Part shown: piece after piece, positions 49,115 to 58,455 of the stretch
Layout of the letters: each line of letters begins with the position of its first letter
Numbering within the stretch: position 1 is the stretch's first letter
Assembly (NCBI GenBank): GCA_016794595.1
Contig: JAEUJN010000013.1
Coordinates: forward strand, 1 to 64,000
Source: Kineosporiaceae bacterium
GTDB taxonomy: Bacteria > Actinomycetota > Actinomycetes > Actinomycetales > Kineosporiaceae
Direction: 5' to 3'
DNA length: 64,000 bases
Translations under genes and position numbers: made by a program
Notes under the pieces: model-generated
Told to the model about the DNA's origin: nothing
Databases searched by the model: none
What the model saw: only the letters and a program-made list of their open reading frames with translations

Positions 49115-49762
49115 GTGCGGGTGCGCGCCGTCGGCGTCGACGGCGGGGCACCGCGCGAGTTCGCCCACCGCCTTCTGGTCGAGTTCGCCGTAGACGCAAG
49201 GGGCCGGGACAGCAGCGGGGAGCCGAGACTCGACCACGACTGCGCCCGGTGCGGGTCCACTGACCACGGGCGCCCTCGGCTGGTCGGCACGGCCGGCGAC
49301 CGGTGGCCGCCGGTGAGCCTGAGCCGCGCGCCGGGGCTGATCGTGCTCGCCCTCGGCGCCCCGGATCGACCCGGCGGTCGGGTCGGGGTCGACGTCGAGC
49401 CGGACGGCGCGGCGCGCTTCGCCTCGTTCGCGGCCTTCGCGGACGTCGTGTTGCACCCCGGGGAGTGGCCACCGGCTGGATCCTGGAACGCGCAGGAGTG
49501 CACCCGCACCTGGGTGCGCAAGGAGGCGGTGCTCAAGGCACTGGGCACGGGGTTGCACCTCGATCCGCGCCACCTGCGGCTCAGCGGGCCGGGTGAGGCG
49601 CCCGCCGTCCTCGAGCTCGATGACCCGACGGGTGCGCCCGAATCACCTGTCGCACAAGGGGTCCGGGTGATCGATCTCGACGTGGCACCGGGATTCACCG
49701 CAGCCCTGGCCGTGGTCGAGGCGAGCGCGGACGGCAGCCTCCGAGCGTTCTCAGCTCGGTAG
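49115..49762 (+). CDS. 4'-phosphopantetheinyl transferase (Sfp type)
   Basis: 215 aa. Transfers phosphopantetheine from CoA to the active serine of carrier domains. The Mg2+ site is GVDVEPDG near residue 92, and the second motif is WVRKEAVLKALG near residue 135. A CARCGSTDHGRP segment resembles a zinc knuckle and is typical of actinobacterial members. It starts with GTG 12 nt after glyS and overlaps the M1 gene tail-to-tail by 12 nt. The obvious client is the carrier domain of the Pls/PosA-like synthetase 5 kb away. Confidence 0.9.
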   Translation: MRVRAVGVDGGAPREFAHRLLVEFAVDARGRDSSGEPRLDHDCARCGSTDHGRPRLVGTAGDRWPPVSLSRAPGLIVLALGAPDRPGGRVGVDVEPDGAARFASFAAFADVVLHPGEWPPAGSWNAQECTRTWVRKEAVLKALGTGLHLDPRHLRLSGPGEAPAVLELDDPTGAPESPVAQGVRVIDLDVAPGFTAALAVVEASADGSLRAFSAR

Positions 49763-51067
49763 CTCGGGCAGCTTGCGCTGGTTCAGCCAGCGGTCGGCCA
49801 CCTCGCTCGGGGTGCTGCCCTTGGCGGCCCGGTCCAGGTGCTTCAGGAACCCGGCAGTGTCGACCAGTCCGTACCGCTTGGCCGCAGTCCAGGAGCGCAG
49901 GGCGTCGAAGAAGTCCCGCTCGCCCATCGCCAGGCGCAGTGCGTGCAGGGTGAGCGCGCCGCGCTTGTAGACCCGATCGTCGAACATCAACTTGGGGCCG
50001 GGGTCGGCCAGCAGCAGGTCCTGCGGCAGCTTTGCCAACCGCGCGTGGTGGTTTCGCGCGTGTTTGTCGGTGCTGGGCCCGCCGCTGGCCTGCGACCACA
50101 GCCACTCGCTGTAGCAGGCGAAACCCTCGTGCAGCCAGATGTCGCGCCAGTGCGCGGCGGTCAGGGAATTGCCGAACCACTGGTGGGCCAGCTCGTGCGC
50201 GACCAACCGCTCGTTCTCCCACCCGGCGACGGCGTGGTTGGCACCGAAGCTCGACATCCCCTGCGCCTCCAGCGGGATCTCCAGCTCGTCCTCGGTGATC
50301 ACCGCCCGGTAGCGGCCGAAGGGGTAGGGGCCGAACAGGTCGGCGAACGTGGTGAGCATCTGGGCCTGGCGCGCGAACGCCGTCCCGGAGCCGACCTTCA
50401 CCCGGCGCGGGTGCACGATCTCGACCGGGATCTTGGCCCCGGCCGCCTTGACCGGGCCGAGTTCGGTCACCGTGGAGCGCCCGATCTGGACGCACACCAG
50501 GTAGGTCGAGGTCGGCTCGGCCTGCTCGTAGACCCAGGTGACGGATCCCGCGCGCTTGCGCCGGGCCACCAGGTCGCCGTTGCCGACCACGTGATACGCC
50601 TCGGCCGTGGTCAGCGACACCCGGTAGCTCGCCTTGTCGTCCGCCCGGTCGTTGCACGGGAACCAGGACGGCGCGCCGTAGGGCTGGGAGCCGACCAGGA
50701 CTCCATCGGTCAGCTCCTCCCACCCGGCGGCGCCGTGCAGCCCGGGAGAGGGCTTGGGCTTGCCGGAGTAGTCGATCCGAACCTCGAACTCCGAACCCGC
50801 CGGTCGCTGCTCGCGCAGCCGGATCACCAGGTGTCCGCCGCGATGAGTGTGGCGCGCAGCGGGTTTGCCGTTGACCAACACCTTGCCGGCGTGCAGGCCG
50901 ATCAGGTCGACGGCCAGTTCGCGTAGCGGTTCGAGCGCGCGCACGCTCAGGGTCGCGGTGCCGGAGAGGTGATTGGTGCCGACCTTGTAGACCAGTTCCA
51001 GGTCGTACCGGCGGACGGCGTAGCGCGTGTCCCCGTGCCCGGGGACGTACTCCCGCGACCGGTTCAC
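49751..51067 (-). CDS. M1-family zinc metallopeptidase (aminopeptidase N-like)
   Basis: 438 aa. The zinc site is HELAHQWFG (His291, His295; catalytic Glu292) with Glu314 in WLHEGF, the HEXXH-x18-E pattern. The exopeptidase loop reads EAQGMSS instead of GAMEN. No signal peptide is evident and the C-terminal domain is short, so it is a compact, probably cytosolic or membrane-associated M1 enzyme. The GTG start overlaps the second GTPase (GTGA). Its place in the Pls locus suggests it may trim or degrade the polymer or its precursor; that is inference. Confidence 0.93.
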   Translation of the reverse strand: MNRSREYVPGHGDTRYAVRRYDLELVYKVGTNHLSGTATLSVRALEPLRELAVDLIGLHAGKVLVNGKPAARHTHRGGHLVIRLREQRPAGSEFEVRIDYSGKPKPSPGLHGAAGWEELTDGVLVGSQPYGAPSWFPCNDRADDKASYRVSLTTAEAYHVVGNGDLVARRKRAGSVTWVYEQAEPTSTYLVCVQIGRSTVTELGPVKAAGAKIPVEIVHPRRVKVGSGTAFARQAQMLTTFADLFGPYPFGRYRAVITEDELEIPLEAQGMSSFGANHAVAGWENERLVAHELAHQWFGNSLTAAHWRDIWLHEGFACYSEWLWSQASGGPSTDKHARNHHARLAKLPQDLLLADPGPKLMFDDRVYKRGALTLHALRLAMGERDFFDALRSWTAAKRYGLVDTAGFLKHLDRAAKGSTPSEVADRWLNQRKLPELPS

Positions 51068-52683
51068 AGCCGCGCCAGCGCTCGGCGCAACTCACTCAGC
51101 TCGCCCAGTTCGCTGGTGACGGTCAGCACGACGTCCTCGTCGATCACCCCGGCCACGTGCTCGGACAGGGATGCTCTCGCCTGGCGCCCCCGCCGGGCGC
51201 CGCCCACGGCGGTCAGGCGCCGCCCGATCGTGGCCAGCAGCGGGCCCAGGATCAGCCCGCCCAGGGCCAGCAGGCTCTGCACCGGGAAGCCGCGCCACTG
51301 CACGCGTGGCGGCGGGGGGAACTGGAACCAGGCCAGTCCCCACAGTGCCAGCACCCAGATCAGCCCGACGATCAGCCCCGCGGCGACGACCCACTGCACG
51401 GTTCCCAGCACGGCCCACCAGCGTGGAGGCTCGAGGTGCAGGTCGGTGCGGCCGGCAGCCTCGTCCAGGGACTCGGGCAGCTCGTCCCGGGTGCTCTCGA
51501 TCACCGACTCCAGGCGCCGCCGGGCGGTCTCGGGCAGCCCTCGGGTGACGTCCTGGCTCAAGTGGCGCATCGCCTCGTCGAGCCGGGCCACGGCCAGCGG
51601 GTCGGCCGAGATCGCCGTCCGGCGCACGGCCACCCCGTCCTTGATCCCCCCGGTCTCGATCGGGCGACGGGTTCCCAACCCGAGGCGCGCCAACGGATCC
51701 GGCCTGGTCTTGCGGATCCAGCGCAGCAACGGCCAGCCGACGGCGAGCGACCCGCGGTGCCGGTAGGACCCGGCCACGGCTGCCTCCAGCTGGCTGCCGC
51801 CGGCGGCCTCGGTGGCAGCGATCACCACCTGTTCGCGGGCCGAGGCGCTGACCGTGCGGTCGGCGAGCCCGGACAGCGAGGCAGTCAGATCCGTTGCCAG
51901 CCAGTCGAGATCGGCATCGATGCGGGTGACGATGGCCCGCCGTTCGGCCACCCGGGCGGCCAGCTCGCGGCGCAGCGCGTCGACCCCCTCGCCGGTGACC
52001 GCCGAGGTGGGAAGCACCCGGACCTCGCCCAGGCCGTCCTCGGCGAGCAGGGCACCGAGGTGGGCGATGGTGCCGGCCCGCGCCTCGGCGTCCAGCCGAT
52101 CGATCTGGTTGAGCAGCACCATGGTGACGGCGCCGTGACGGCCGAACTGGCGCAGGTAGCCCTCGTGCAGCGCGGCGTCGGCGTACTTCTGTGGGTCGAC
52201 CACCCAGCCGAACACGTCGACCACCGCGACCAGCCGGTCGACCTCGGCTCGGTGCGCGGTCACCTTCGAGTCGTGGTCGGGCAGGTCCAGCAGCACCAGG
52301 CCCTCGAGCGAGCCACCCTCGTGACGTTGCCGGTTGGGGATCTCGAGCCAGTCCAGCAGGGGGCCCGCGCCGTCCCCGTACACCGCGGCCAGCGGCGAGG
52401 ACGTCGTGGGGCGGCGGATGCCGGTGGTCGCCCACTCGGTGCCGGTGATCGCGTTGAACAGGGAGGACTTGCCGCTGCCGGTGGCGCCGGCCAGGGCGAC
52501 CACGGTGTGGCTGGTGCCGTGCCCGAGCCGGGCGGTGGCGGTCGCCAGGGTGCTCTGGATCCGGGCGAGCACCGGCTCGTCCAGCCGGCCCTGGCCGAGG
52601 TCGGCGATCCGCGAGAGCGCCCTCAACCGCGCCCGCAGGCCATCGACCTCGGCCGTGGGTGAGGTGGTCGGATCCGGGCTCAC
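51064..52683 (-). CDS. Dynamin-like GTPase with two C-terminal membrane helices
   Basis: 539 aa. G1 is GATGSGKSS (66-74), G3 DLPDHDS, G4 NQID, with the GTPase domain about 60-270. A helical stalk (about 270-400) and two helices (about 405-465: VQWVVAAGLIVGLIWVLALW, then SLLALGGLILGPLLATI) follow, and a tail. It is predicted to associate with membranes and form a heteromeric pair with the upstream GTPase. The GTG start overlaps its stop by 4 nt. Similar pairs (DynA/DynB) act in Streptomyces sporulation septa; this pair's role is unknown. Confidence 0.88.
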   Translation of the reverse strand: MSPDPTTSPTAEVDGLRARLRALSRIADLGQGRLDEPVLARIQSTLATATARLGHGTSHTVVALAGATGSGKSSLFNAITGTEWATTGIRRPTTSSPLAAVYGDGAGPLLDWLEIPNRQRHEGGSLEGLVLLDLPDHDSKVTAHRAEVDRLVAVVDVFGWVVDPQKYADAALHEGYLRQFGRHGAVTMVLLNQIDRLDAEARAGTIAHLGALLAEDGLGEVRVLPTSAVTGEGVDALRRELAARVAERRAIVTRIDADLDWLATDLTASLSGLADRTVSASAREQVVIAATEAAGGSQLEAAVAGSYRHRGSLAVGWPLLRWIRKTRPDPLARLGLGTRRPIETGGIKDGVAVRRTAISADPLAVARLDEAMRHLSQDVTRGLPETARRRLESVIESTRDELPESLDEAAGRTDLHLEPPRWWAVLGTVQWVVAAGLIVGLIWVLALWGLAWFQFPPPPRVQWRGFPVQSLLALGGLILGPLLATIGRRLTAVGGARRGRQARASLSEHVAGVIDEDVVLTVTSELGELSELRRALARL

Positions 52684-54383
52684 AGTGCACCTCCGCGGGA
52701 CAGGTTCTCGGCCAGCGCCCGCAGGCGCTCCGGCGCCCGGGCGTCGATCCCGAGCCGGGCGACGGCCGCCCGATACCGCTCGGCCTCCTCGTCATACACC
52801 GCGGCCACGCGTGAGCCGAGGGCGTCCCGTGCCCTGGACGCCAGCGTGCGGATCGCCTGGTCGCCGAGCAACGCCTCGAGCAGGGTGTGCCCGACCGCGC
52901 TGGCCCCGCCGGCGACAGCGGCCTCGGCGCCGGTCAGCCCCCCGGTGTGGGCGAAGACCACCATCATCACCACGGCAGCCACGCCGTTGACCCCGAGCGA
53001 GACCACGCGCGCGGTCGACTTGCGGTCACCGCCAACACTGCGCACCAGCTCGAGCAGCTCGCCCTGCCAGGCGCGCACCGCGGCGGCCGCCCGGACGTCG
53101 AGCTCGACCGACGAGCGGGCCAGCGCCCCCGAGGTGTCGGCGGCGATCAGGCGTTCCCCGCCCGGGCGCGAGCGCCAGCGGGAGGCGACATCGGCCGCGG
53201 CGGCGTCCCCCTGGGTGCGGATCAGGGTCTGGACGACGTTCTCGACCGCCTCGGTGAACTGGGCGTGGGTACGACGGCGTCCGGTGAGCACCCCGGCGAC
53301 CTGGTCGCGAAGCCTGCTCAGCCCCGTGCGCAGCTGCCGGAACAGCTCGCCGGTGCCCAGCAGTTCCTCCCAGCGCGCCAGCACCTCACCCCGCAGCAGC
53401 GTCCCGCTCTCCACCGCGGTGCGCACCGCGGTCTGGGCCTCGCCGTAGGCGGCCTCGACGTCCGAGAGCAGCCGGTCGCCGACCTCCACCTGGGTGGCCA
53501 CCGCCTCTGCCACGGCGTGGGTGCGCGCGGCCAGATCGCCCAGCGAGCCCTGCAACGAGCGGCGGACGGCCGCGGCCCTGGCCTCGGTGTCGGCGCCGAG
53601 ACGGTCCAGCCAGCCGCGCAGGTCGGCCACCGCCCCGGCCGGCAGCCGGCCCTCGACCAACTCCTGCTCGATCACGGTCACCACGGGAGTGTCGTGCAGC
53701 CCCTCCTCGGTGAGCATCTGGGCCAGGTGGGCCGACAGCGCCTCGGCGCCCTCGGGTGGGGTCCGGTTCAGCACGACCACCAGGGGAGTGCCGCGGCGCT
53801 GGGCCGAGCGCAAGAAGTCCCACGGGACGGCGTCGGCGTAGCGGGCAGCAGTGGTCACGAAGATCCACAGGTCGGCTGCCGCGAGCAGGTCGGCCGCCAG
53901 TTCACGGTTGGCCACCGACACCGAGTCGATGTCGGGGCTGTCCAGCAGCGCGATGCCGTCCGGCAGGGCCGTGCTGGCCACCAGGCGTACCTCGCGCTGG
54001 CTCCTGGCCTCTCCCTCGAACACCCGGGCCAGGTTGGGCAGCACGTGGCCGCCCTGGAACCAGGCGGCGTCGTCCGGGTCGTGCACCAGCACCGGCGCCA
54101 TGGTGGTCGGTCTCAGGTACCCGGGCCGGGTCACGTCGGTGCCCAGCACGCTGTTGGTGAGAAGCGACTTGCCCGATCCGGTGGACCCGCCGATCACCAC
54201 CAGGGCGGGTGCCTCGAGGTTGCCCAGCCGTGGCAGAACGTGGTCGTCGAGCTCACGAACCATGGCCGCGGCGTCCCGGGCGGCCTCGGCGGCGCCGGGC
54301 ATGCCCGGTTCGAGGCGCAGGGCGCTCAACTCGGCGCGCAGGTCGGTGGCGGTCCGGTGCAGGCCGGCGATGTCGGTGCTCAT
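52680..54383 (-). CDS. Dynamin-like GTPase (first of a tandem pair)
   Basis: 567 aa. G1 is GGSTGSGKS (65-73), switch TTMAPVL, G3 LLDSPDIDS, G4-like LNRTPP, then a long helical stalk (about 260-450) and one or two membrane helices near residues 470-510 (VVSLGVNGVAAVVMMVVFAH). It stays at the membrane and probably assembles with its partner, whose GTG overlaps the stop. ATG 54383; the gap to the Pls gene upstream is 211 nt. Both GTPases carry intact G1 and G3 motifs, so both should bind GTP. Confidence 0.88.
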   Translation of the reverse strand: MSTDIAGLHRTATDLRAELSALRLEPGMPGAAEAARDAAAMVRELDDHVLPRLGNLEAPALVVIGGSTGSGKSLLTNSVLGTDVTRPGYLRPTTMAPVLVHDPDDAAWFQGGHVLPNLARVFEGEARSQREVRLVASTALPDGIALLDSPDIDSVSVANRELAADLLAAADLWIFVTTAARYADAVPWDFLRSAQRRGTPLVVVLNRTPPEGAEALSAHLAQMLTEEGLHDTPVVTVIEQELVEGRLPAGAVADLRGWLDRLGADTEARAAAVRRSLQGSLGDLAARTHAVAEAVATQVEVGDRLLSDVEAAYGEAQTAVRTAVESGTLLRGEVLARWEELLGTGELFRQLRTGLSRLRDQVAGVLTGRRRTHAQFTEAVENVVQTLIRTQGDAAAADVASRWRSRPGGERLIAADTSGALARSSVELDVRAAAAVRAWQGELLELVRSVGGDRKSTARVVSLGVNGVAAVVMMVVFAHTGGLTGAEAAVAGGASAVGHTLLEALLGDQAIRTLASRARDALGSRVAAVYDEEAERYRAAVARLGIDARAPERLRALAENLSRGGAL

Positions 54384-54594
54384 GGCAGCCTCGACGCTAT
54401 CCGAACCCCCCGCGACACGGCGGGAGATCCCTCATCGACCGGCGTCGCGGACGAAGTTCCACCCCGTGGCCGGCAGCCGGTCCGCGGTGAGGAAGGTGAG
54501 CTGGTCGTTCCCGGCCCGGCTGAGCAGCATGCGGGCGAACGGATCGCGATGGGGCAGAGCGATCTCGGCGAGAGCCTGACCAAGCCCAGTCCGC
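54384..54594 (-). other. Gap holding a possible gene remnant
   Basis: On the minus strand, about 54432-54594 encodes a coding-like stretch with no start codon (LPHRDPFARMLLSRAGNDQL, then TGWNFVRDAGR and a stop). It is out of frame with the Pls gene that ends at 54595. It could be the end of a deleted gene or chance. A promoter for the GTPases may also lie here; none was identified. Confidence 0.3.
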
Positions 54595-57500
54595 TCAGCT
54601 CACCCACGGGCCGATCGGGTTGCCGATCCAGCGGGTCTTGTCGGGCACGGACTCCCCACGCATCACCAGTGACACCGGCCCCACCGTCGCGTGCCGGCCG
54701 ATCACCGCCGCCGGGAGCACCACCCCGTTCGGGCCGAGCGTCGACCCCGCGCGCAGGGTCACCGTGTCCAGGCTGAGCACCCGGTCGTGGAACAGGTGGG
54801 TCTGCACGACGCAGCCCCGGTTGACCGTGGCGCCGTCCCGAAGGTCGATCAGGTCGGGCTCGGGCAGCCAGTAGCTCTCACACCACACTCCCCGCCCGAT
54901 CCGCGCGCCCATCGTGCGCAACCACAGGTTCAGGACGGCGGTGCCGCCGGCCGCGCGCGCGAACCACGGGGCCGCGATCACCTCGACGAAGGTGTCGGCC
55001 AGCTCGTTGCGCCACACGAAGCTGCTCCACAGCGGATGGTCGCGACGCGAGACCCGGCCCACGAGAGCCCATTTGGCGATCGTGGCGACGGTGGCCGCGA
55101 TTGCTCCGGCGGCCATCAGCACCAGCCCACCGGCGGCTGCCGCGAGCCACCACCCGAACCTGTCGGCCACGGCCACCAGGACGGCGACCACGGCGACCAC
55201 CAGCGTGGCGTGCAGCCACAGCGGCACCACCCGGCCGGCCTCGACCAGAGCCCGGGCCACCCGGAGCCGGGCGGGCGGATGGAAGGTGCGCGCGCCGTCC
55301 GTGCGGGCGGTGCTGCGTCGCAGCAGGGCGGGCGGGCTGCCGATCCACGAGGTGCCGGCCTTGGCCGCGGTGCGCTGTGGTGCGGCCGAGAGCACTGCCA
55401 CCAGGCCGTGTTTGGGTACCTTGCGCCCGGGGGCGGCCATGCCGGAGTTGCCGACGAAGGCGTGCTTGCCGACCTTGACCGGCTCGATGCGCAACCAGCC
55501 GCCGCCGAGTTCGTAGCCCCCGATCAGGGTGTCGTCGGCCAGGAACGCGCCCTCGGCCACGCTGGTCAGCCGGGGGATCATCAGCACGGTGGAGGCCTCG
55601 ACGTCCGGGCCGATGCGGGCGCCGAGCGCGCGCAGCCAGGCCGGGGTCAGCGTGCTGGAGTAGAGCGGGAACAGCCAGGTCCTGGCCTCATCGAGTACCC
55701 GCATCGTCGACCACGCCTGCCAGGCCGCGCGGCCCTGGACCGGGTAGGCGCCGGGACGGAGCCCCAGGCCGAGCAGCCGGGTCAGCAGCCAGACCGCCAC
55801 AGCCAGGACCAGGACGGCCACCACGGAGGCCACCGGCAGGCGCAGCAGGGCGATCCGCGCGGCCTCACCCACGGACTGCCCGGCGCTCAGGGCGGGCCAC
55901 GCGGTGGCCGCACCGGCCAGCACGGCGAGCACCGGCAAGGCCGAGATCAGGACCGACATCGCCGCATAGGCCACCAGCCAGACGGGCCGGTTGGGGGGCC
56001 GGGTGTCGTGGTAGGGCCCGCGAGCGGGCCCGATCGGCTGCGCCGGGGCCCCCGACCAGAACTCACCGGCCGGCACCGCCCCGAAGACGGCCGAGCCGGC
56101 GGCGATCTCGGCCCCTGCGCCGATGTGCGCGCCGGGCGCCAGGGTGCTGCGCGCCCCGACCCGGGCACGCTTGCCCACGTGCACCCTCCCCAGGTGCAGC
56201 CGCGCGCCGTCCAGCCAGTAGCCCGCCAGGTCGACCTCGGGTTCGATCGCGCAGCCCGCCCCCAAGGTCATCAGCCCGGTCACCGGGGGGATCGAGTGCA
56301 GGTCGACGTCCCGGCCGACCCGGGCACCGAGCAGCCGCGCATACCAGCGCATGAGCAGGGCGCCCGACAGGTTGCCCGCGCCCAGCTCGTCCACCAGCCG
56401 CTCGGCGAGCCAGACCCGCAGGTGCACCCGGCCGCCGCGCGGGTAACTGCCCGGACCGATGCCGGCCAGCACCACCCGGGCCCCGAGCGCGGCGAGCAGC
56501 ACCCGCCCCGGCGGGAACAGCAGCAGCGCCCAGCCCAGGCCGATCGGCCACCAGGGCGCGGTGGGCAGCCAGGCCAGTGACGCCGGGCCGAGCTGCGCGG
56601 CCAACGTCGTCCCGGAGGCGATCCAGACCAGCCAGCGCAGCCCGGCCAGGGTGCGCAGCGGCCAGGTCCCCAGCACCTGGCCGACCTGGGTCTTCAGCGG
56701 GACGGGTGGGACGTCGGCGTTGAGCCGCGACGTCGGGGCGGTCATGGCGTCCAGGTGACGCGCCAGGGCGGCCAGGGTCGGGTGGTCGTAGATGTCCGCG
56801 ACCGTGATCTCGGGATGGGTGGTGCGCAGCAGCGAGACCATCTGGGCCGCGGTCAGGCTGCCCCCGCCGAGATCGAAGAAGTCGACGTCCACGTCGGTGA
56901 TCCGGGCGCCGAGCACCTCGCGCCACAGCTCGGCGACGCGGGCCTGGGTGCCGCGCAGGCCGAGAGCGGGGCCCTCGTCGGCGCCGGCCAGAGGCCAGGG
57001 CAGGGCGTCCCGGTCGATCTTGCCGCTGGTGCGGGTCGGCAGGTCGTCGACCACTGCCAGCCGTGGCACGAGGGCGGCGGGCATCGCGGCGCGCAGGGTG
57101 GCCGTGGCCGCAGCCAGGTCGAAGGCCGTCCCGTCCTCGGCCGTCGAGGCGTCCAGCGTCAGGTACCCGACCAGGATCGCGTTGCCGGACGCCGTCCGGC
57201 GCACCGCCGCAGCAGCCGCGCTCACCCCCGGCAGCGCCAGCAGTGCGCTGTCGATCTCGCCCAGCTCGATCCGGCGGCCGCCGACCTTGACCTGCTCGTC
57301 GGCCCGGCCGCCGAACAGCAGCCCGGTGCCGTCGAAGCGCACGATGTCGCCGCTGCGGTAGGCGCGCTGCCAGCCCAGGCTGGGCATCGGCGCGTACTTC
57401 TCGGCATCCTTGACCGGATCGAGGTAACGGGCCAGACCCACCCCGCCGATGATCAGCTCACCGCTCTCGCCCTCGGGCACCGGGGTGCCGTCGGGGCCGA

Positions 57501-58455
57501 CCACGGCCAGGTCCCACCCGTCCAGCGGCAGTCCGATCCTGACCGGGGGCTCGCCGGTCAGTCGCGCGGCGCAGGCGACCACCGTGGCCTCGGTGGGGCC
57601 GTAGGTGTTCCACACCTCCCGCCGCGGCGTGGCCAGGCGGGCGGCCAGTTCGGGTGGGCAGGCCTCACCGCCCAGGATCAGCAGCCGTACCCGGTCCAGG
57701 GCGTCCGCCGGCCACAGGGCGACCAGGGTCGGCACGGTGGAGACCACCGTGACGGAGTTGGCGGTCAGCCACGGCCCGAGGTCCATGCCGCTGCGCACCA
57801 GGGATCGGGGCGCCGGTACCAGGGCGGCGCCGTGGCGCCAGGCCAGCCACATCTCCTCGCAGGAGGCGTCGAACGCCACCGACAGGCCGGCCATCACCCG
57901 GTCGTCCGGGCCGATGGGCGCATCGGTCAGGAACAGCCGCGACTCGGCGTCCACGAAGGCGGCCGCGCTGCGATGGCTGACCGCGACCCCCTTGGGGGTT
58001 CCGGTCGACCCCGAGGTGAAGATCACCCAGGCGTCGTCGTCCGGGGTCGGCCCGGCGTCGATCGGGGCGGCGTCCAGGCGCCGAGGGGTGATCACCAGGT
58101 CGTTACCGATCACCGCGGCCACGTCCGCCTCGCCGAACACGGTCCGCGCGCGCTCGTCCGGATCGTCGGCGTCCACCGGCACGTACGCCGCGCCGGCCAG
58201 CAGCACACCCATGATCGCCACGTACAGGTCGATCGTGCCCGAGGCGATCCGGACGCCGACCCGGTCGCCCCGCCCGACGCCGAACTCGGCCAGCTCGGTG
58301 GCCACCTGCTCGGCCTGCTCGGCGAACTCGGCGTAGGTGAGCACCAGGGCACCGTTGTCCAGCGCGGGTTCGTCGGGCACCTCGGCCACCGTGCGCCGGG
58401 AGATGTCCACCAGGGTGCGCGGCGCGGGGGCATGGTCGGCACGGCGCAGGGACAT
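54595..58455 (-). CDS. Pls/PosA-type membrane non-ribosomal peptide synthetase
   Basis: 1286 aa. An adenylation domain (about 10-490) has FTSGSTGTPKG, NTYGPTEATV, YRSGDIV and the catalytic Lys479 (TSGKIDRD). The carrier domain has the phosphopantetheine Ser533 (DLGGGS). Three pairs of membrane helices alternate with three tandem hexapeptide-repeat domains (starting near 680, 980 and 1200). There is no condensation or thioesterase domain of the usual kind. This is the architecture of epsilon-poly-lysine synthetase. The pocket residues read D-A-E-S-I-G-T-V-V-K, close to lysine-type codes. ATG 58455 follows CATACT by 7 nt. Confidence 0.9.
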   Translation of the reverse strand: MSLRRADHAPAPRTLVDISRRTVAEVPDEPALDNGALVLTYAEFAEQAEQVATELAEFGVGRGDRVGVRIASGTIDLYVAIMGVLLAGAAYVPVDADDPDERARTVFGEADVAAVIGNDLVITPRRLDAAPIDAGPTPDDDAWVIFTSGSTGTPKGVAVSHRSAAAFVDAESRLFLTDAPIGPDDRVMAGLSVAFDASCEEMWLAWRHGAALVPAPRSLVRSGMDLGPWLTANSVTVVSTVPTLVALWPADALDRVRLLILGGEACPPELAARLATPRREVWNTYGPTEATVVACAARLTGEPPVRIGLPLDGWDLAVVGPDGTPVPEGESGELIIGGVGLARYLDPVKDAEKYAPMPSLGWQRAYRSGDIVRFDGTGLLFGGRADEQVKVGGRRIELGEIDSALLALPGVSAAAAAVRRTASGNAILVGYLTLDASTAEDGTAFDLAAATATLRAAMPAALVPRLAVVDDLPTRTSGKIDRDALPWPLAGADEGPALGLRGTQARVAELWREVLGARITDVDVDFFDLGGGSLTAAQMVSLLRTTHPEITVADIYDHPTLAALARHLDAMTAPTSRLNADVPPVPLKTQVGQVLGTWPLRTLAGLRWLVWIASGTTLAAQLGPASLAWLPTAPWWPIGLGWALLLFPPGRVLLAALGARVVLAGIGPGSYPRGGRVHLRVWLAERLVDELGAGNLSGALLMRWYARLLGARVGRDVDLHSIPPVTGLMTLGAGCAIEPEVDLAGYWLDGARLHLGRVHVGKRARVGARSTLAPGAHIGAGAEIAAGSAVFGAVPAGEFWSGAPAQPIGPARGPYHDTRPPNRPVWLVAYAAMSVLISALPVLAVLAGAATAWPALSAGQSVGEAARIALLRLPVASVVAVLVLAVAVWLLTRLLGLGLRPGAYPVQGRAAWQAWSTMRVLDEARTWLFPLYSSTLTPAWLRALGARIGPDVEASTVLMIPRLTSVAEGAFLADDTLIGGYELGGGWLRIEPVKVGKHAFVGNSGMAAPGRKVPKHGLVAVLSAAPQRTAAKAGTSWIGSPPALLRRSTARTDGARTFHPPARLRVARALVEAGRVVPLWLHATLVVAVVAVLVAVADRFGWWLAAAAGGLVLMAAGAIAATVATIAKWALVGRVSRRDHPLWSSFVWRNELADTFVEVIAAPWFARAAGGTAVLNLWLRTMGARIGRGVWCESYWLPEPDLIDLRDGATVNRGCVVQTHLFHDRVLSLDTVTLRAGSTLGPNGVVLPAAVIGRHATVGPVSLVMRGESVPDKTRWIGNPIGPWVS

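What the first reader, a model, noticed from the sequence alone, without database searches (positions are those of the whole stretch)
54595..58455. Adenylation-domain pocket of the Pls-like enzyme reads as lysine-like
Aligning by eye with GrsA gives D235 A236 E239 S278 I299 G301 T322 V330 V331 K517 (FDASCEE, TVVSTVP, LLILGGEA, NTYGPTEATVV, SGKID). From memory this is close to the DAESIGSVAK-type code given for lysine. That predicts a basic amino acid as substrate and a poly-lysine-like product.
Basis: partly seen in the sequence, partly recalled or inferred. Interest (0 to 1): 0.7.

Follow-up and report, generated by a model that had tools for sequence, protein, structure and literature searches.

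The report
Epsilon-poly-lysine synthetase gene, lysine pocket
The gene encodes an enzyme that almost certainly chains lysine into the natural antimicrobial epsilon-poly-lysine; its amino-acid pocket is identical to that of the known Streptomyces enzyme, so the finding is right but ordinary.

Summary
Aligned to GrsA (1AMU), the ten pocket residues of window:54595-58455(-) are D A E S I G T V V K. The comparison code given from memory was not the best one. The true match is the solved adenylation domain of Streptomyces epsilon-poly-L-lysine synthetase (7WEW), which has the identical ten residues and 64% identity over 486 aligned positions. The full protein is a TIGR02353 Pls/PosA enzyme (692 bits, cut-off 423), with the adenylation, carrier and three-part membrane terminal domain intact. 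Named relatives beside diaminobutyrate genes carry Phe at position 2 instead, and PosA, the ornithine enzyme, has DMEHNGTVSK (PMC10522769). A PldII-like M1 peptidase, the usual partner of Pls, lies downstream on the same strand. Of 105 full-length relatives examined, 104 share the exact code and 103 have the peptidase directly behind pls. Here two dynamin/Era-like GTPase genes lie in between, the only unusual feature. I commit to an L-lysine-activating epsilon-poly-L-lysine synthetase, confidence 0.9. Nothing was assayed. It is a new member of a known and widespread kind.

The parts
54595..58455 (-). pls: epsilon-poly-L-lysine synthetase-type NRPS (A-T-terminal domain), 1286 aa
   Evidence: TIGR02353 692 bits, cut-off 423
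56986..58455 (-). adenylation domain (residues 1-490)
   Evidence: 64% identical to 7WEW
57577..57870 (-). pocket residues D196 A197 E200 S239 I260 G262 T284 V292 V293 (code positions 1-9)
   Evidence: repeated
57019..57021 (-). K479, code position 10 (GrsA K517)
56752..56940 (-). carrier (thiolation) domain, residues 506-568, with motif DFFDLGGGSL for the phosphopantetheine serine
   Evidence: PF00550, 7.5e-15; motif read from the sequence
54613..56679 (-). terminal membrane domain (TIGR02353): three pairs of long helices, each followed by a left-handed beta-helix-like region
49751..51067 (-). PldII-like M1 zinc peptidase (HELAH, residue 291), usual partner of pls
52680..54383 (-). dynamin-family GTPase gene lying between pls and the peptidase
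   Evidence: absent from the 112 relative loci searched
51064..52683 (-). second GTPase gene, overlapping its neighbours on both sides by 4 bp

Best explanation
The gene is an actinobacterial epsilon-poly-L-lysine synthetase (pls). The A domain activates L-lysine with ATP: D196 holds the alpha-amino group, E200 the side-chain amine, and Ala at code position 2 leaves room for the full lysine chain. Lysine is then loaded on the carrier domain's phosphopantetheine. The membrane-bound terminal domain (six helices, three beta-helix domains) repeatedly joins the alpha-carboxyl of one lysine to the epsilon-amine of another, giving a released cationic isopeptide. The downstream M1 peptidase would trim or degrade the polymer for self-protection. 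Shown here: family, architecture, pocket identity, partner gene, phylogenetic place, intactness. Inferred from characterised relatives: lysine activation, epsilon linkage, polymer length, the peptidase's substrate.
For: TIGR02353 hit far over its cut-off. Best solved relative is 7WEW, epsilon-poly-L-lysine synthase: 628 bits against 375.7 or less for every other chain. The ten-residue code is identical to 7WEW. 54% full-length identity to a protein annotated Pls (H17), whose A domain is 89% identical to 7WEW. The tree joins window and H17 with support 0.999, apart from the four outgroup CHPA synthetases H19, H22, H25, H30. Enzymes next to diaminobutyrate genes have DFECLSAVTK and DFECLSVVTK. 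The window departs at only 3 of 357 columns conserved in at least 97% of 105 relatives, none a pocket residue. A PldII-type M1 peptidase lies downstream, the only one of its kind found in the genome. Published: a Corynebacterium Pls only 51% identical to Streptomyces Pls made epsilon-PL of 26-35 residues in S. coelicolor (PMC8117764 Results section).
Against: No assay, expression or product data. In PosA, the M218A mutant (Ala at position 2, as here) still preferred ornithine over lysine in kcat/KM (4.74e2 against 2.76e1; PMC10522769), so Ala alone does not prove lysine. The peptidase is not directly behind pls as in 103 of 105 relatives. C. variabile, with a working pls, made no detectable epsilon-PL in culture, so the gene may be silent here too.
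Confidence: 0.9

Rival explanations
1. A Pls-family synthetase that prefers another diamino acid (ornithine, diaminobutyrate, diaminopropionate or beta-lysine) and makes a different cationic polymer.
For: The family does make such polymers (PMC10522769). Ala at position 2 in the PosA M218A mutant did not abolish ornithine use.
Against: Code identical to 7WEW at 10 of 10. PosA's code is DMEHNGTVSK. Position 2 is Phe in the two diaminobutyrate-context relatives. In the tree the window joins the Pls side with support 0.999. No diaminobutyrate transaminase or aspartate kinase gene is among the neighbours scanned with Pfam.
Confidence: 0.06
2. A lysine-activating enzyme that no longer makes a long polymer (degenerate terminal domain, or product degraded at once), so no epsilon-PL is made.
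For: The peptidase gene overlaps a GTPase gene rather than following pls, so regulation of synthesis and degradation may be uncoupled. C. variabile showed no product in culture.
Against: The terminal domain scores 692 bits and keeps the conserved columns. The fold model is confident (mean pLDDT 88.4).
Confidence: 0.04

Closest known systems
Streptomyces epsilon-poly-L-lysine synthetase Pls (A domain 7WEW; Streptomyces sp. NBC_01454 WP_329142456.1)
   Same: Identical ten-residue pocket; 64% A-domain identity to 7WEW (311 of 486) and 54% full-length identity to the NBC_01454 protein; same domain order; M1 peptidase downstream
   Different: Peptidase separated from pls by two GTPase genes; product unproven
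Corynebacterium variabile Pls (PMC8117764)
   Same: Same family, same peptidase partner, reported identical or near-identical pocket; functional at 51% identity to Streptomyces Pls
   Different: Its sequence was not compared here
PosA, delta-poly-L-ornithine synthetase of Acinetobacter baumannii (8G95-8G98, PMC10522769)
   Same: Same architecture; D and E at pocket positions 1 and 3, T at 7; A-core fold Z about 46
   Different: Code DMEHNGTVSK; about 36% identity in the aligned A core
gamma-poly-diaminobutyrate-type synthetase (Streptomyces sp. NBC_01527, next to dat and ask genes)
   Same: Same family and architecture
   Different: Code DFECLSAVTK; 34% full-length identity; different gene neighbours
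PldII, epsilon-PL-degrading peptidase of S. albulus (named in PMC8117764)
   Same: Window M1 peptidase is 45% identical to the M1 protein next to pls in NBC_01454 and has HEXXH
   Different: PldII itself was not compared; activity untested

Membership tests
epsilon-poly-L-lysine synthetase (Pls) | Pls/PosA terminal domain fused behind A and T domains | tested here: met
   TIGR02353 692 bits, cut-off 423; PF00501 and PF00550 in order
epsilon-poly-L-lysine synthetase (Pls) | Lysine pocket as in 7WEW | tested here: met
   DAESIGTVVK, 10 of 10
epsilon-poly-L-lysine synthetase (Pls) | Six TM helices in three pairs with three beta-helix C domains | tested here: met
   Predicted model m10cd47e083ff: three long-helix pairs, each followed by a beta-helix-like region; nearest solved folds by Foldseek are hexapeptide acyltransferases, with low TM; hydropathy peaks fit pairs 2 and 3 clearly, pair 1 weakly
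epsilon-poly-L-lysine synthetase (Pls) | Groups with Pls apart from Dab/Dap/Orn synthetases | tested here: met
   FastTree, support 0.999; outgroup H19, H22, H25, H30 only; PosA not in the tree
epsilon-poly-L-lysine synthetase (Pls) | M1 (PldII-type) peptidase gene directly behind pls (usual, not strictly defining) | tested here: not met
   Peptidase present downstream on the same strand, but about 3.5 kb away behind two GTPase genes; directly adjacent in 103 of 105 relatives. This is a neighbourhood habit, not a property of the enzyme, so it does not bar membership
epsilon-poly-L-lysine synthetase (Pls) | Activates L-lysine and makes epsilon-linked polylysine | not testable with these tools
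   needs an assay
delta-poly-L-ornithine synthetase (PosA) | Met at code position 2 and Ser at position 9 (DMEHNGTVSK) | tested here: not met
   Ala and Val here; PosA code from PMC10522769
poly-diaminobutyrate / diaminopropionate synthetase | Phe at code position 2 | tested here: not met
   Ala here; Phe in the two diaminobutyrate-context relatives H19 and H30, and also in H22
PldII epsilon-PL-degrading M1 peptidase | M1 gluzincin with HEXXH, gene linked to pls | tested here: met
   PF01433, HELAH at residue 291, same-strand linkage though not adjacent
PldII epsilon-PL-degrading M1 peptidase | Cleaves epsilon-PL | not testable with these tools
   needs an assay

The most novel reading that the evidence does not exclude
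In this lineage the pls-peptidase pair has captured a dynamin-like GTPase pair that is now translationally coupled to the peptidase and helps the membrane tolerate, or export, the polycationic product: a self-protection module not otherwise seen in the pls loci examined.
Probability: 0.08. Interest if true: 0.45.

Novelty: new member of a known kind. Interest (0 to 1): 0.2.

Why it matters
It adds a soundly predicted epsilon-poly-lysine producer to a large, already described set. Epsilon-PL is a food preservative. The practical gain is a confident substrate call that needs only a routine assay. The one unusual point is the GTPase pair between pls and its peptidase, which gives a simple question about polycation self-protection.

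Tried and rejected
Rejected: that the pocket is merely lysine-like by one remembered code; the exact comparator is 7WEW. Rejected: ornithine and diaminobutyrate enzymes, on pocket positions 2 and 9 and on phylogeny. Rejected: a decayed enzyme (3 departures at 357 conserved columns).

Led nowhere: the 53-codon open stretch without a start codon at its head at 54435-54593(-), in the gap after pls, matches no Pfam family and no other fetched locus at better than E 0.78. A promoter and terminator scan of 54300-54800 found 0 sites. The PDB sequence search with the first GTPase found nothing at E 0.01 or better. A literature search combining polylysine, pldII, dynamin, GTPase and operon (3 of 5 terms) listed 8 of 255 papers; none of the eight titles concerns pls. 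The PldII paper PMC2935060 is not held.

They are therefore biased towards this code and cannot show how often other codes occur. The phylum sample (396 genomes, 25 with a match at E 1e-60 or better) was found with the terminal domain instead. I fetched all 28 matches other than the window's own: 21 are full-length, all DAESIGTVVK, 20 of 21 with the peptidase behind. The other 7 places (L161, L162, L168, L180-L183) gave no Pls-like full-length protein with a readable Pls code; they were dropped from the tree and conservation counts and not pursued. In one search four loci had an incomplete code because I cut proteins at 700 residues; all four read DAESIGTVVK. L034 reads DAESIGTIIK. L033 has an odd stretch inside its A domain, left as it is and kept in the counts.

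Full report
What was claimed.

The observation. The ORF is real: 1286 aa from ATG with no internal stop. Pairwise alignment gives DAESIGTVVK at GrsA positions 235, 236, 239, 278, 299, 301, 322, 330, 331 and 517. Two multiple alignments give the same. The remembered comparator DAESIGSVAK is not the best one. The A domain of Streptomyces epsilon-poly-L-lysine synthase (7WEW) has exactly DAESIGTVVK and is 311 of 486 (64%) identical. The blocks around the pocket are nearly the same: VAFDASCEEMWL in both, TVVSTVP in both, LLILGGEA against LLIVGGES, VWNTYGPTEATVVACA against MWNTYGPTETTVVACA.

What the protein is. TIGR02353 (Pls/PosA family) scores 692 bits against a cut-off of 423. Pfam finds AMP-binding and the carrier domain. 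The terminal 716 residues model confidently (mean pLDDT 88.4, 31 aligned sequences) as three pairs of long helices, each followed by a beta-helix-like region. The nearest solved folds are hexapeptide acyltransferases such as serine acetyltransferase, at low whole-model TM. This agrees with what Patel and Gulick describe for PosA (PMC10522769, section 13 read). The A-domain model (mean pLDDT 85.5) matches 7WEW best (Z 54.9, 473 residues, 62% identity), ahead of PosA (Z about 46). The rmsd to 7WEW over the whole domain is large (7.3). I take this as a different setting of the C-terminal subdomain, because the PosA matches, which end near residue 385, have rmsd about 2.2. That is an inference.

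Substrate logic. In PosA, Asp217 and Glu221 (code positions 1 and 3) hold the two amines and are essential, and the residue at position 2 is proposed to set chain length: Phe for Dap/Dab, Met for Orn, Ala for Lys (PMC10522769, passages read). The window has D, E and A there. Named relatives from plasmid records served as controls. The one beside diaminobutyrate transaminase and aspartate kinase genes reads DFECLSAVTK, the one beside ectB DFECLSVVTK, Shinella DFEALGTVTK, Azospirillum DLEDIGSVVK, and the annotated pls of Streptomyces sp. NBC_01454 DAESIGTVVK. A result against a simple reading must be told. The PosA M218A mutant, with Ala at position 2, still had a higher kcat/KM for ornithine (4.74e2) than for lysine (2.76e1). 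So the whole pocket and the 64% identity carry the argument, not position 2 alone.

Relatives and neighbours. The own genome has one such gene over the cut-off. 5 of 13 genomes of the family search, the own genome included, have one over the cut-off, as do 24 of 396 phylum genomes. I examined 105 full-length relatives: 80 from named genome contigs, 4 from family genomes, 21 from the phylum sample. 104 of 105 read DAESIGTVVK and one (L034) DAESIGTIIK. In 103 of 105 an M1 peptidase lies on the same strand behind pls, median gap 45 bp, largest 1256. The two exceptions are L034, where only 1541 bp of contig follow, and L169, with 3983 bp read. One further named relative outside this count, Streptomyces viridifaciens (H14), has the same code and no peptidase listed next to it. 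PMC8117764 (Results section read) states that the Streptomyces peptidase PldII degrades epsilon-PL and forms an operon with pls, and that a Corynebacterium Pls 51% identical to the Streptomyces one makes epsilon-PL in S. coelicolor. The window's peptidase (49751-51067, HELAH motif) is the only close match in its genome and is 45% identical to the M1 protein beside the NBC_01454 pls.

Intactness and descent. The window protein departs at 3 of 357 columns that are at least 97% conserved among the 105 relatives; the median for other members is 2. In trees, both Pls and the peptidase of the window fall in one clade with Nocardioides, Tetrasphaera, Kocuria subflava and L177 sequences (support 0.994 and 0.988). 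Full-length Pls identity is highest to these (up to 69%). Relatives from the window's own family (L031-L033) are not in that Pls clade.

The one oddity. Two GTPase genes (52680-54383 and 51064-52683) lie between pls and the peptidase. The gap after pls is 211 bp, and the following genes overlap by 4 bp each. None of the 112 other pls-type loci searched shows the pair. Similar GTPases occur elsewhere in all 13 genomes of the family search, the own genome included, so the pair was probably inserted. Paired dynamin-like genes in operons are common in bacteria (PMC6104087, abstract in search listing). Any role in polycation tolerance is speculation.

Verdict. This is an epsilon-poly-L-lysine synthetase by every test of the enzyme itself that sequence allows, a new member of a known, common kind; interest 0.2.

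Noticed in passing
window 51064-54383: A dynamin/Era-like GTPase gene pair lies between pls and its M1 peptidase; in 103 of 105 relatives the peptidase follows pls directly.
   Followed up: partly
window 54435-54593 (-): A 53-codon open stretch without a start codon at its head in the gap behind pls, protein-like in look, no match in Pfam or in the fetched loci; possibly a gene remnant.
   Followed up: partly
L034:1541-5602: A same-family Pls relative with code DAESIGTIIK, 48% identity and 51 departures from conserved columns; no peptidase in the 1541 bp that follow. Possibly a different polymer.
   Followed up: no
L162, L168, L180: ORFs of 824-919 aa with a strong Pls/PosA terminal domain but no fused A domain of Pls type; a stand-alone form of the terminal domain.
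   Followed up: no
window 54595-58455 and 49751-51067: Pls and peptidase both group with Nocardioides/Tetrasphaera sequences; the Pls of the window's own family relatives falls elsewhere, which suggests transfer of the pair or differential loss.
   Followed up: partly
L033:1442-5569: An unrelated-looking stretch replaces part of the A domain in this relative; perhaps an assembly error.
   Followed up: no
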